IMG/VR virus record: IMGVR_UViG_3300032516_000111
Coordinates: 1-31,613 of that record
Length of the DNA: 31,613 nucleotides
From: a virus
Reading direction: 5' to 3' (one strand)
A program made the position numbers and the translations under genes. Shown in pieces: positions 3,090 through 31,565 of this stretch. The notes below the pieces were generated by a model, which saw only the letters and a program-made list of their open reading frames with translations, did no database searches and was not told where the DNA came from. Numbering within the stretch: the first letter of the stretch is position 1; every line of letters starts with the position of its first letter.

Positions 3090-3716
3090 ATGAGCTATGA
3101 AGAAGATGCGACAGTGAAGAACCAACATGCAGGAAAGCCACTCAACCGCACTGCACCAGGCGTGTATGAGCAGGCGAGGGATGGTTTCTGGCAGCCGCTT
3201 CCTCTGCCCGTTGGACGAGTGGAATTTGGGCCCAGCAGTGCACCAGGAACGGTGCTCCCGCTGGATAAGGTGAAGCTGGAAACCTTGCGCGTGAACGATG
3301 ACCTCACCAAAGGTGGGGTCAAATTCGATCATGGGAAAGCCCGACTGTCCTTGATGGACCCCAAGTGGCTGCTCGAATTGATGCAAGCGCAGACGAATGA
3401 GCCAGGATTGCGCACGGATCTGATCCCTGTTTCTATGGTTGTGGCCGTCGGGCGCATTCTTACCATTGGCGCCAAGAAATATGCAGAGCGCAATTGGGAA
3501 GCAGGTATGACATGGAGCCGTGCGTATGATGCGTGCGGACGACATTTACTACAGTGGGCCGACGACACGAATGATAAAGATACGCGACTGAACCACATCT
3601 GGCACGCCGCGTGCAACCTAGCATTCTTGATTGAATGGGAACAAAGTCATCCCGAATTTGATGACCGTCCTTACGGCCCCGACAAAGGACCAGAGAATGC
3701 ACAAACCAAGCTCTAG
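3090..3716 (+). CDS. MazG-like dATP/dGTP pyrophosphohydrolase (DUF5664 type)
   Basis: The first 70 of 208 residues are poorly conserved. From GGVKFDHGKARLSLMDP the protein matches the phage family formerly called DUF5664, now linked to dGTP/dATP diphosphohydrolases: LTIGAKKYAERNWEAGMTW, then YDACGRHLLQWADD and LNHIWHAACNLAFLIEW. Acidic and His residues in these helices resemble the MazG-type metal site that splits dNTPs to dNMP and pyrophosphate. It would shape the deoxynucleotide pool. In some phages relatives belong to the 2-aminoadenine pathway, but no PurZ or DatZ is seen here. The ATG is preceded by AAGAGGA. Confidence 0.75.
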   Translation: MSYEEDATVKNQHAGKPLNRTAPGVYEQARDGFWQPLPLPVGRVEFGPSSAPGTVLPLDKVKLETLRVNDDLTKGGVKFDHGKARLSLMDPKWLLELMQAQTNEPGLRTDLIPVSMVVAVGRILTIGAKKYAERNWEAGMTWSRAYDACGRHLLQWADDTNDKDTRLNHIWHAACNLAFLIEWEQSHPEFDDRPYGPDKGPENAQTKL

Positions 3717-3915
3717 TATTATCAATGCCTCTGCCTCACCATGGCATGTGGCAGAACGCACAGGGTTGACCGTATGCCACCATTGTGGACATCCGTATGA
3801 ACTCGGGTGGAATGTAAGCACGCAACACTACCAGGGATGTCCTTGGTTAGAAGCGTATCTCAAGGAAAGTCAAGCGGTCGCCGTCGGAGACGGACCAACC
3901 ATTCTGAATGAATAG
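3697..3915 (+). CDS. Small zinc-finger-like protein
   Basis: The 72-residue product starts at ATG 3697, inside the end of the previous gene (20-nt overlap), with AAGGA seven bases upstream. VCHHCGHPY gives a CxxC knuckle, and HYQGCPW supplies His and Cys as possible further ligands. Nothing else is recognisable. The frame is open further upstream to 3631, but that start would overlap much more and has no clear ribosome site. It ends just before the promoter of the sliding-clamp gene. Confidence 0.6.
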   Translation: MHKPSSSIINASASPWHVAERTGLTVCHHCGHPYELGWNVSTQHYQGCPWLEAYLKESQAVAVGDGPTILNE

Positions 3916-4690: not shown

Positions 4691-4783
4691 GCACCTGTAG
4701 TGTACGGCTGCACGGGCGGCCTTATAAACCGCATCGCACTAGATTAGTGTTCAGACTCGGTTCAATTCCGAGCAGGTGTACCA
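4691..4783 (+). tRNA. tRNA with long variable arm, apparent anticodon UAU
   Basis: A 93-nt gene including encoded CCA. Acceptor stem 4691-4697 pairs with 4773-4779 (first pair G-U). The D arm is 4700-4713, anticodon stem 4716-4720 with 4728-4732 (innermost pair C-A mismatched), and the loop CTTATAA gives U33 and anticodon UAU (codon AUA, Ile). The T arm is perfect: CTCGG, TTCAATT, CCGAG. The variable region is 23 nt long with its own CACT/AGTG stem, as in Leu, Ser or Tyr tRNAs and not Ile. Two bases separate the D and anticodon stems instead of one. Identity is therefore uncertain. It lies between gp45 and gp44. Confidence 0.8.
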
Positions 4784-30072: not shown

Positions 30073-30273
30073 ATGGTCCAACCAACGAAACTTGAAGCCA
30101 TGTTGCTCCATCTACTCCACAAGCCTGGTCCGTCAGGGCGCCCCTGGGTGTCTGTCACTGTGCCAGGATATCCAAAGTTTACGAGAGACGACGTAGAACA
30201 CGAACTATACCAAGCCAAACGTCATTGGTATAGTTGGATACTTGGTGACCAGCGTCCCAAAAATAAACCTTGA
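30073..30273 (+). CDS. Small protein of unknown function
   Basis: The 66-residue basic product starts after GAGG, eleven bases after the preceding stop, and has a helical N-terminus (KLEAMLLHLLHKPG) and a middle FTRDDVEHELYQAKRHWYSW. Its layout (short helical region, then VxxELxxAxRHWYSW) is not a family I know. It ends inside the next promoter. Confidence 0.55.
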   Translation: MVQPTKLEAMLLHLLHKPGPSGRPWVSVTVPGYPKFTRDDVEHELYQAKRHWYSWILGDQRPKNKP

Positions 30274-30298
30274 CTTCCGACTGGTATTTTGTTATACT
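30270..30298 (+). promoter_or_regulatory. Promoter of the Fe-S carrier/RNA unit
   Basis: TTGACT at 30270-30275, a 17-bp spacer and TATACT at 30293-30298 preceded by TGT (extended -10). Starting near 30305 it gives only about 13 nt before ATG 30318, without a clear ribosome site. Confidence 0.8.
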
Positions 30299-30317
30299 TG
30301 TAGTGTTGCATAAGTAG

Positions 30318-30656
30318 ATGACAATCCCCTTACAGCAGACCGGCCAATTTGCGTTGACCGACGCGGCTGTCGCCCAGATTTTGAAGCGTAACGCCCTGAA
30401 TACAAACGGCTTACGTATCTCAATCAAGGGCGGCGGCTGTTCAGGCTTGACATATGTGTTCGGATGGAGTATAATTGCTCCTGACGATGAGACGTTTGAG
30501 CGTAATGGTGCTTGCGTGTTCATTGACCGAAAGAGTTTTGTGTTCTTGCGCGGGACAGTGTTGGATTACGATGACAACCTGCTTGTGCGGAACTTCGTGC
30601 TTCGCAACCCAAACGTGGTATCTACGTGCGGTTGCGGAGCATCGTTTGGAGTGTAG
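30318..30656 (+). CDS. A-type Fe-S cluster carrier (HesB/IscA-like)
   Basis: The 112-residue protein carries GGGCSGLTYVFG (C41) and STCGCGASFGV (C104, C106), the three Cys ligands of A-type carriers such as IscA, SufA and ErpA; the length is typical (about 107). It would accept and hand on [2Fe-2S] or [4Fe-4S] clusters. Cyanophages encode similar proteins. Its target in the phage-infected cell is unknown. The short leader suggests near-leaderless translation. Its stop TAG shares the first G of the structured RNA. Confidence 0.88.
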   Translation: MTIPLQQTGQFALTDAAVAQILKRNALNTNGLRISIKGGGCSGLTYVFGWSIIAPDDETFERNGACVFIDRKSFVFLRGTVLDYDDNLLVRNFVLRNPNVVSTCGCGASFGV

Positions 30657-30745
30657 TGCTGGTGGCAAAATCTACTCATTAGGGTAGAGCCCAGCCGTCG
30701 GGTTAATACCAGTGGGAGTTGATACCCACAACGGACGGTCAGCAC
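30656..30745 (+). ncRNA. Structured tRNA-like RNA element of unknown type
   Basis: GTGCTGG (30656-30662) pairs with TCAGCAC (30739-30745), seven pairs (last a G-U), followed by ATTTT. Inside lie CTAC/GTAG hairpin (30672-30687), stem CCGTC/GACGG (30695-30699 with 30734-30738) enclosing GGT/ACC (30701-30710) and GTGGG/CCCAC (30712-30729) hairpins. It looks like a compact three-way junction adjoining tRNA-Ala. No canonical tRNA loop (no U33, no TTCRA) fits, so it is not an ordinary tRNA. It could be a degraded tRNA or a new RNA. Confidence 0.4.
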
Positions 30746-30750
30746 ATTTT

Positions 30751-30824
30751 GGGCGCGTGATGTAACGGGAGCTTGGCTGGTTTGCACCCAGTATGTGAGA
30801 GTTCGATTCTCTCCGTGTCCACCA
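30751..30824 (+). tRNA. tRNA-Ala (UGC), with encoded CCA
   Basis: Acceptor GGGCGCG (30751-30757) pairs with CGTGTCC (30814-30820), including G3-U70, the alanine identity pair. The anticodon stem GCTGG/CCAGT (last pair G-U) closes TTTGCAC, with U33 and anticodon UGC. T arm GAGAG, TTCGATT, CTCTC is perfect and ACCA is encoded. The D stem has one mismatch (T-T). It matches tRNA-Ala(UGC) in all key positions and lies 94 bases after the Fe-S carrier stop. Confidence 0.93.
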
Positions 30825-30828
30825 AGTA

Positions 30829-30917
30829 GTCTGAGGCATGGGTTCGAATCCCATACGGGCCACAACAACAACTGGGCGGCGCCCAGGGCCCGTTGGTGTC
30901 AGGGGTAGCATCCAGGC
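30829..30917 (+). tRNA. Circularly permuted tRNA candidate (3' half before 5' half)
   Basis: The 3' half comes first: anticodon-stem side GTCTG (30829-30833), variable AGGC, T arm ATGGG, TTCGAAT, CCCAT (30838-30854), acceptor ACGGGCC (30855-30861), discriminator A (30862). A 24-nt linker (CAACAACAA plus the hairpin CTGGGC, GGC, GCCCAG, 30863-30886) follows. Then the 5' half: acceptor GGCCCGT (30887-30893), T8, G9, D arm GTGT...GCAT with GGGG, and CAGGC (30913-30917). Acceptor halves pair in all seven positions, the anticodon stem in five (one G-U). Invariant U8, G18G19, A21 and TTCGA are present. The anticodon-loop junction and anticodon cannot be determined; CCA is not encoded. Alternative: remnants of a tandem duplication. 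Confidence 0.6.
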
Positions 30918-30934
30918 GTCGATATTTCGGCATG

Positions 30935-30962
30935 GGAGCGATCCCTACCTTGCTCCGTTTTT
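30935..30962 (+). terminator. Intrinsic terminator of the tRNA cluster
   Basis: GGAGCGA (30935-30941) pairs with TTGCTCC (30950-30956), seven pairs including one G-U, with an 8-nt loop and GTTTTTT after it. It probably ends the Fe-S carrier/RNA transcript. A small hairpin GTCGA/TCGGC lies just upstream (30918-30931). Confidence 0.65.
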
Positions 30963-30997
30963 GGGTTTGGGCGCGAGGGACAGTGAAAACCCTTTTT
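30963..30997 (+). terminator. Second terminator-like hairpin
   Basis: GGGTTT (30963-30968) pairs with AAACCC (30987-30992) and is followed by TTTTT (30993-30997). The 18-nt loop makes it weaker than the first; both lie before the next gene. No ribosome site is visible upstream of that gene. Confidence 0.4.
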
Positions 30998-31001
30998 GAT
31001 T

Positions 31002-31565
31002 ATGGCGAACATCTTTTTCATCAGTGATACCCACTTCGGACAAGAGAGTATCATCCATTTTCTGCGACCCGATGGGACCCCGATGCGCCCTTTCGCGAAT
31101 GCGGACGAGATGGACGAGGCGTTAATTGCGAACTGGAACGCGGTGGTCCGTCCGCAAGACCATGTGTACCATTTGGGTGATGTCGCGATGAAGCGGAAGC
31201 TGATTCCGCTGATTGGCCGATGTAATGGGCACAAGCGGCTGTTGACAGGGAATCATGACATTTTCGACACCAAGAAAGACTATCTTCCGTGGTTTGAGAA
31301 GATTTACGGTACGCGATACATAGGGAACTTGCTCCTGTCGCACTACCCAATCGATAAGGGTAGCTTGAAGCCGGAGTGGACGAATGTCCACGGACATACG
31401 CACGCGAATGAGCCAATGTTCGGCATTGACGGGCGTTTGGGACCACGATACTTGAACATCTCTTGTGAGTGGACGAACTACACACCCATCGCGTTTGAGG
31501 AAGTTTTGGGGCTGGTCGAGTTGCAGAAACGACGTGCTAATATTCTAGCGACTGCGGATAAATAA
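31002..31565 (+). CDS. Metallophosphoesterase
   Basis: The 187-residue protein carries all calcineurin-like blocks: FFISDTHFG (D9, H11), HLGDVA, TGNHDIF, LSHYP and VHGHTHAN, ending in a short beta domain. It is a two-metal phosphohydrolase with unknown substrate, similar in size to phage and bacterial YfcE-like or Ap4A-like phosphatases. Start ATG 31002 is preferred to TTG 30996 since the family begins MANIFFISDTHF; no ribosome binding site is obvious. Its end forms half of a perfect inverted repeat. Confidence 0.88.
   Translation: MANIFFISDTHFGQESIIHFLRPDGTPMRPFANADEMDEALIANWNAVVRPQDHVYHLGDVAMKRKLIPLIGRCNGHKRLLTGNHDIFDTKKDYLPWFEKIYGTRYIGNLLLSHYPIDKGSLKPEWTNVHGHTHANEPMFGIDGRLGPRYLNISCEWTNYTPIAFEEVLGLVELQKRRANILATADK

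What the first reader, a model, noticed from the sequence alone, without database searches (positions are those of the whole stretch)
30825..30931. Circularly permuted tRNA candidate in a phage tRNA cluster
After tRNA-Ala, a tRNA 3' half (T arm TTCGAAT, acceptor ACGGGCC) precedes its matching 5' half (acceptor GGCCCGT, D arm with GGGG), joined by a 24-nt linker CAACAACAA plus a 6-bp hairpin. All seven acceptor positions and five anticodon-stem positions pair, and U8, G18G19, A21 and TTCGA are kept, which makes coincidence unlikely. Permuted tRNA genes are known from algae and some archaea, where splicing endonuclease and ligase join the halves; I know of no standard bacterial route. The anticodon-loop junction is unresolved, so the molecule may be a two-piece tRNA-like RNA or a tRNA remade by phage RNA-end enzymes.
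Basis: partly seen in the sequence, partly recalled or inferred. Interest (0 to 1): 0.9.

Follow-up and report, generated by a model that had tools for sequence, protein, structure and literature searches.

The report
Compact permuted tRNA mimic in phage
Right behind a normal tRNA gene this phage carries an RNA whose two halves form a tRNA shape in swapped order; it looks like a short, stripped-down relative of the tRNA-mimicking bacterial Y RNAs, and the same arrangement turns out to be common in phage sequences.

Summary
At 30829-30917 a tRNA 3' half precedes its 5' half; all 21 cloverleaf pairs form (18 Watson-Crick, 3 G-U), and the minimum-energy fold of 30825-30931 is exactly the permuted cloverleaf. 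Nothing in 190 Mb of shuffled window scored as high. It is not unique: a pattern scan of IMG/VR gave 28 loci, of which 25 are permuted tRNA-like structures outside any complete tRNA. Their stems covary, seven overlap Rfam YrlA (Y RNA-like) matches, five of 26 records encode a Ro60/TROVE protein, and the class carries an outer stem. So the class is the circularly permuted tRNA-like domain of bacterial Y RNAs, already known, also from phages. A model built without the window finds the candidate at 43.8 bits, E 6e-11. It differs from YrlA: no Rfam YrlA match, and tRNA-Ala ends four bases before its 5-bp basal stem, leaving no room for the Ro-binding stem. Seven other phage loci share this compact, tRNA-abutting form. 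Best reading: a stem-less variant of the YrlA-type tRNA mimic, not shown to decode. Function is inferred; expression is untested.

The parts
30751..30824 (+). tRNA-Ala(TGC) with encoded CCA, directly upstream; its 3' processing would create the 5' end of the candidate
   Evidence: ARAGORN; Rfam RF00005 50.9 bits
30829..30833 (+). 5' strand of the basal (anticodon-type) stem, GTCTG; only AGTA separates it from the CCA of tRNA-Ala
   Evidence: pairs with 30913-30917
30838..30854 (+). T arm ATGGG-TTCGAAT-CCCAT
   Evidence: sequence
30855..30861 (+). acceptor 3' strand ACGGGCC (A 30862 at the discriminator position, no CCA)
   Evidence: 7/7 Watson-Crick with 30887-30893
30863..30886 (+). linker closing the acceptor end: CAACAACAA and 6-bp hairpin CTGGGC-GGC-GCCCAG
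   Evidence: sequence; fold
30887..30893 (+). acceptor 5' strand GGCCCGT
30894..30912 (+). U8, G9, D arm GTGT-CAGGGGTA-GCAT (30896-30911), position 26
   Evidence: model R1 match 30838-30911, 43.8 bits
30913..30917 (+). 3' strand of the basal stem, CAGGC
30918..30931 (+). hairpin GTCGA-TATT-TCGGC stacked directly on the basal stem, in place of an anticodon loop
   Evidence: fold
30935..30961 (+). terminator-like hairpin GGAGCGATCCCTACCTTGCTCC followed by GTTTTT; the stretch 30928-30948 also resembles a decayed copy of the 3' half
   Evidence: 3 sites found, 1.3 expected in shuffles; local similarity p 0.0018

Best explanation
The region encodes a short structured RNA that folds like a tRNA cut open in the anticodon loop and joined at the acceptor end: a circularly permuted tRNA-like domain of the kind found in bacterial Y RNAs (YrlA), here in a compact form without the long Ro/Rsr-binding end stem. 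Shown: sequence, pairing, relationship to a widespread covarying phage class, and the stem-less tRNA-abutting arrangement in seven other loci. Inferred: it is co-transcribed with tRNA-Ala; 3' maturation of tRNA-Ala frees its 5' end; transcription stops at or after the hairpin near 30956; the RNA stays a closed-acceptor tRNA mimic that is not charged and does not decode. Most likely role (inferred, about 0.35): a decoy or docking RNA for a tRNA-binding enzyme such as PNPase or a host anticodon nuclease, sparing phage tRNAs or shifting RNA decay.
For: Permuted fold is the minimum-energy fold; absent from 190 Mb of shuffles. 25 of 28 scan hits are permuted. Covariation 0.600 against 0.146 shuffled and at most 0.165 when slid; 98.9% of acceptor cells paired. 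YrlA Rfam matches sit on L135, L125, L140, L117, L134, L128, L119. TROVE gene in 5 of 26 class records, starting about 350 and 550 bases downstream of the domain in two. Outer leader-trailer stem in the class: matched pairs beat swapped pairs in all 20,000 permutations. Window scores 43.8 bits with a model that excludes it. Compact, tRNA-abutting relatives L155, L160, L176, L179, L187, L201, L206; their basal stems match better than swapped ones, p 0.0006. L201 fills a 74-base gap between tRNA-Asn and tRNA-Gln. Literature: PMC8394870, PMC11472068, PMC12282133.
Against: No RF02553 match in the window even at E 10. No outer stem (16% of foreign trailers do as well, and the leader is tRNA-Ala itself). 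No TROVE gene in the 42 kb seen, though the genome is incomplete. Only one other contig carries it, identical over this region, so covariation cannot be tested on the element itself. A competing fold wins by 2.9 kcal in longer context. The R1 model also scores some tandem normal tRNAs at 30-52 bits, so the score alone does not prove permutation. TROVE enrichment is confounded by record size (0 of 49 control records, but those are small).
Confidence: 0.66

Rival explanations
1. A true circularly permuted tRNA gene: the ends in the anticodon loop are cut and ligated, RNase P and RNase Z remove the acceptor linker, CCA is added, and a decoding tRNA results, as in algae and Thermofilum.
For: Complete cloverleaf with 5-bp anticodon-type stem. 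In 9 of 25 class members the linker starts with N-CCA exactly where a tRNA 3' end would lie, p 9e-11, so those 3' ends could be, or descend from, chargeable ends.
Against: No leader-trailer helix at the break; a 5-bp hairpin follows the stem directly. Loop remnants GTCGATA and AGTA give no conventional loop (position 37 would be U). Junction lengths vary widely among compact relatives. No CCA here. No ligase found in the partial genome (weak).
Confidence: 0.12
2. A remnant of two tandem copies of one tRNA: copy one lost its 5' half, copy two's 3' half decayed; the inner halves still pair by descent.
For: GGCATGGGAGCG-ATCCC-TAC downstream resembles the intact 3' half (p 0.0018 against shuffles; 4 of 3134 background windows as good). 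Tandem duplication followed by loss is also a natural origin for a permuted gene.
Against: Both inner halves are intact (21 of 21 pairs) while both outer halves are gone. The same downstream stretch reads as a terminator hairpin. Across 25 loci the acceptor pairs are kept by compensatory changes. L107 lies in a 60 kb record without any normal tRNA.
Confidence: 0.13
3. A full Y RNA whose Ro-binding stem is formed in a way not recognised here, acting with a phage or host Rsr.
For: Class relatives have such a stem and some lie beside a TROVE gene.
Against: Only four bases lie between tRNA-Ala and the basal stem; leader-trailer pairing is not above chance; no RF02553 match; no TROVE in the seven unambiguous compact-form records.
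Confidence: 0.07
4. A permuted intron-exon arrangement: group I intron halves flank the tRNA halves and make a circular tRNA precursor.
For: The order 3' exon - 5' exon would fit.
Against: tRNA-Ala occupies the place of the intron 3' half; no RF00028 match at E 10.
Confidence: 0.01
5. Chance resemblance.
For: None beyond the general caution for single elements.
Against: 190 Mb of shuffles without an equal; 43.8 bits with an independent model against 11.3 for the next hit in the window.
Confidence: 0.01

Closest known systems
YrlA, bacterial Y RNA (Rfam RF02553; crystal structure 6CU1)
   Same: tRNA-like domain in circularly permuted order (T arm, acceptor closed by a loop, D arm, ends at the anticodon position)
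   Different: YrlA has a long end stem that binds Rsr; here a 5-bp stem only, with a tRNA gene four bases upstream, and no RF02553 match
Permuted tRNA genes of Cyanidioschyzon, green algae and Thermofilum
   Same: gene order 3' half - linker - 5' half; break in the anticodon loop possible
   Different: those have a bulge-helix-bulge at the break, splicing endonuclease and ligase (PMC3978253); none seen here
Permuted (two-piece) tmRNA (Rfam RF04321)
   Same: permuted tRNA-like end with a removable linker at the acceptor end, known from bacteria
   Different: no tag reading frame, a full D arm, acceptor third pair C-G and not G-U; the weak RF04321 match (E 0.37) uses the T arm of tRNA-Ala, not this element
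Putative Y RNAs of Listeria phage CKA15 and of mycobacteriophages (PMC12282133)
   Same: phage-borne candidate Y RNAs
   Different: discussed there with an Rsr-like gene nearby; none found here. In the related phages P100 and A511 the permuted model's best hits lie on neighbouring complete tRNA genes

Membership tests
YrlA / bacterial Y RNA | circularly permuted tRNA-like domain (T arm, closed acceptor, D arm) | tested here: met
YrlA / bacterial Y RNA | long stem of paired 5' and 3' ends (Ro/Rsr site) | tested here: not met
   leader is tRNA-Ala, only 5 bp
YrlA / bacterial Y RNA | matches Rfam RF02553 | tested here: not met
   no match up to E 10
YrlA / bacterial Y RNA | Ro60/Rsr (TROVE) partner in the genome | tested here: inconclusive
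   none in G000 or G001, genome partial; partner could be the host's
YrlA / bacterial Y RNA | binds Rsr and PNPase | not testable with these tools
   needs biochemistry
Permuted tRNA gene (algal/archaeal type) | 3' half precedes 5' half with full acceptor and anticodon-stem pairing | tested here: met
Permuted tRNA gene (algal/archaeal type) | leader-trailer helix / bulge-helix-bulge at the break | tested here: not met
Permuted tRNA gene (algal/archaeal type) | joined, charged tRNA product | not testable with these tools
   needs RNA work
Permuted tmRNA | tmRNA tag frame and tmRNA-type tRNA-like end | tested here: not met
   ARAGORN none; RF04321 match weak and on tRNA-Ala
Permuted group I intron-exon | group I intron halves on both sides | tested here: not met
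   no room upstream

The most novel reading that the evidence does not exclude
Phage tRNA arrays carry a distinct class of compact, stem-less permuted tRNA-like RNAs, each slotted behind or between tRNA genes and cut out by the processing of its neighbours. They are not Y RNAs in function but stand-alone tRNA decoys (for example against host anticodon nucleases), or even precursors of re-ligated tRNAs.
Probability: 0.3. Interest if true: 0.85.

Novelty: new variant of a known kind. Interest (0 to 1): 0.6.

Why it matters
Standard tools miss these RNAs: ARAGORN called no complete tRNA at 27 of 28 scan hits, and Rfam YrlA matched only weakly or not at all. If the compact form is expressed, phages use permuted tRNA shapes more widely than the few reported Y RNAs, and phage tRNA arrays, which may protect against host tRNA cleavage, contain a second, non-decoding component. 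It also gives a concrete case for how permuted tRNA-like genes may arise in tandem tRNA arrays.

Tried and rejected
Close relatives: the window's HesB-like gene found only the one near-identical contig; the phosphoesterase and polymerase genes found other phages as well, but none gave a diverged copy of this element. RNR relatives gave 80 contigs; a permuted-model search of most of them hit only the near-identical contig L023. Integrase, to test an attP explanation for L107 and the window: none. RNA ligase PF09511: none, but no control rang. Group I intron: none. BLAST of the halves joined as a linear tRNA, to find its isotype: only weak matches to Met- and Gly-type tRNAs. DNA searches for four of the compact relatives in sequenced phages: no match. 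Orphan T arms in several isolates were ordinary tRNAs or too unclear to use. P100/A511: best hits are neighbouring complete tRNAs. Chen 2014, Sim and Wolin 2018 and Wang 2018 are not in the library, so they are cited only through papers that quote them.

Full report
What is there. The window is a virus record of a T4-like phage: B-family polymerase, clamp loader, RNR, translational regulator. A second contig, IMGVR_UViG_3300036761_001317, is 99.7-99.8% identical over the overlap and 100% identical over 30250-31200. It continues past the window end and holds 18 ARAGORN tRNA calls in 12.96 kb, so the element sits at the left edge of a tRNA array. Directly after tRNA-Ala(TGC), 30751-30824, the order is: basal stem strand GTCTG, T arm, acceptor ACGGGCC, a 24-nt linker with a hairpin, acceptor GGCCCGT, D arm, CAGGC. 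All 21 cloverleaf pairs form, 18 Watson-Crick and 3 G-U.

Chance. The permuted cloverleaf is the minimum-energy fold of 30825-30931. A scanner that scores T, acceptor, D and basal stems plus T-loop, U8 and GG gives 20.5. In 3000 dinucleotide shuffles (190 Mb) the maximum is 20.0, and 19.0 when TTCRA is required. The total fold energy is not exceptional (z -1.7), so the argument rests on the specific architecture, not on stability.

A class, not an oddity. A scan of IMG/VR with the T loop and this acceptor sequence found, besides this element, L107: a lone permuted structure in a 60 kb record with no normal tRNA and no integrase. A second scan with a different fixed acceptor core (GCCC...GGGC) gave 28 loci. 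One (L114) is a pair of complete tRNAs, two are chance (L127, L131), and 25 are permuted structures where ARAGORN sees no complete tRNA; L139 is a near-copy of L133. In an alignment of 25 loci (L107 in, L139 and the window out), 94% of cells pair and the covariation score is 0.600, against 0.146 for shuffles and at most 0.165 for slid partners. Three acceptor pairs left free by the pattern covary strongly. The pattern fixed the other four acceptor pairs and part of the T arm, so those count for nothing.

Identity of the class. Rfam RF02553 (YrlA, Y RNA-like) matches L135, L125, L140, L117 and L134 over the full model and L128 and L119 over the tRNA-like part, E 3e-6 to 0.3, all below the gathering score. 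Leaders and trailers pair with each other far better than when swapped between loci: matched residual -6.4 kcal, permutation sd 0.83, none of 20,000 permutations as low. Five of 26 class records encode a TROVE (Ro60/Rsr) protein. In two it starts about 350 (G024) and 550 (G015) bases downstream of the domain, in a third (G016) about 2.8 kb. None of 49 control records has one, but those are shorter, so the adjacency is the stronger evidence. The literature agrees: YrlA is 90-150 nt with a long end stem binding Rsr and a tRNA-like domain reported to bind PNPase (PMC8394870); that domain is a circular permutation of tRNA (PMC11472068); phages are reported to carry Y RNAs and Ro-like proteins (PMC7765460; PMC12282133; PMC7824862). 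By these tests the class is the Y RNA tRNA-like domain.

Where the window element stands. A covariance model built from the 25 other loci finds it at 30838-30911 with 43.8 bits, E 5.7e-11; the next hit in the window has 11.3 bits. The model also scores tandem normal tRNAs at up to about 52 bits (L114), so the score counts only together with the absence of a complete tRNA. Against full membership: no RF02553 match up to E 10, and no outer stem, since tRNA-Ala ends four bases before the basal stem.

The compact form. A third scan asked for a second T arm close behind a tRNA CCA. It stopped at 120 stretches, 80 of which were listed and analysed. Of these, seven carry a permuted structure like the window's, with 0-13 bases between CCA and basal stem: L155, L160, L176, L179, L187, L201, L206. 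In L155 and L179 the upstream 3' end is not part of an ARAGORN tRNA. L201 fills a 74-base gap between tRNA-Asn and tRNA-Gln; L160 and L176 fill gaps of about 87 and 93 bases. Their basal stems, which were not used to accept them, pair better than swapped ones, p 0.0006 with the window included. L160 and L179 are the weakest (basal stem 2 and 3 of 5). None of the seven records has a TROVE gene, but several are fragments. I left out L181, L168 and L184 as ambiguous.

How it most likely works. Shown: architecture and class. Inferred: co-transcription with tRNA-Ala, 5' end made by tRNA-Ala maturation, 3' end at or after the hairpin 30935-30956 (a terminator-like site, only weakly above the chance rate), and a closed acceptor end that prevents charging. 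A permuted tRNA mimic that keeps the T and D arms should be recognised by enzymes that read the tRNA elbow. The best guess is a decoy or docking RNA for PNPase or a host tRNA nuclease; the same competitive role was proposed for YrlA against an anticodon nuclease (PMC7790460). I give that function about 0.35.

Alternatives. A re-ligated tRNA is disfavoured by the missing leader-trailer helix, the hairpin at the break, the irregular junction lengths and the missing CCA. Yet 9 of 25 class linkers begin with N-CCA exactly at positions 73-76 (p 9e-11), which suggests that the class descends from, or still makes, tRNA 3' ends. A tandem-duplication remnant is disfavoured by two intact inner halves, but a 22-base similarity downstream to the 3' half (p 0.0018) is what such an origin would leave, so descent from a tandem pair is plausible even if the present element is functional.

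Limits. Only one lineage carries this exact element, the genome is partial, the folds compete (2.9 kcal), and there is no RNA evidence.

Noticed in passing
window 30656-30745: Strongly folding element directly before tRNA-Ala (z -4.6, none of 200 shuffles as good), with 7-bp end helix GTGCTGG/TCAGCAC; no Rfam match.
   Followed up: partly
L002 3608-3692, 3712-3790, 4507-4597, 3166-3325, 5170-5330, 5885-6010: Further structured or tRNA-like intergenic stretches in the same array, some with 7-10 bp end helices; 3712-3790 looks like a tRNA with anticodon GAT, C33 and T loop GGCAGTA. Read by eye only.
   Followed up: no
L002 8753-8822: tRNA-Met-like gene (anticodon CAT) with a shrunken D arm, missed by ARAGORN; Rfam gives only a weak tRNA-Sec match.
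   Followed up: no
L142/L191, L159/L172, L171 (two), L190: Acceptor-plus-T-arm-only 'mini-tRNAs', several with encoded CCA, directly behind complete tRNAs.
   Followed up: partly
L115, L123, L130, L136, L138: Stem-bearing permuted RNAs that also carry an anticodon-arm-like and, in some, a variable-arm-like hairpin after the D arm, i.e. permuted between variable arm and T arm.
   Followed up: partly
L113-L140 linkers: N-CCA at the start of the linker in 9 of 25 permuted loci, as if the tRNA 3' end were kept.
   Followed up: yes
L120, L115, L128, L132, L135, L138: Two or three permuted domains per locus, within about 1.3 kb of each other.
   Followed up: partly
L275 1491-1610 (Mycobacterium phage Nanosmite, about 57.1 kb): Unannotated possible permuted tRNA-like structure behind a CCA, acceptor only 6/7 with a 56-nt linker; a weak lead in an isolate grown on M. 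smegmatis.
   Followed up: partly
window 4691-4783: 93-nt tRNA call (Ile-TAT) with a long variable arm, just upstream of the clamp-loader gene; the related contig of L016 also has one tRNA.
   Followed up: no
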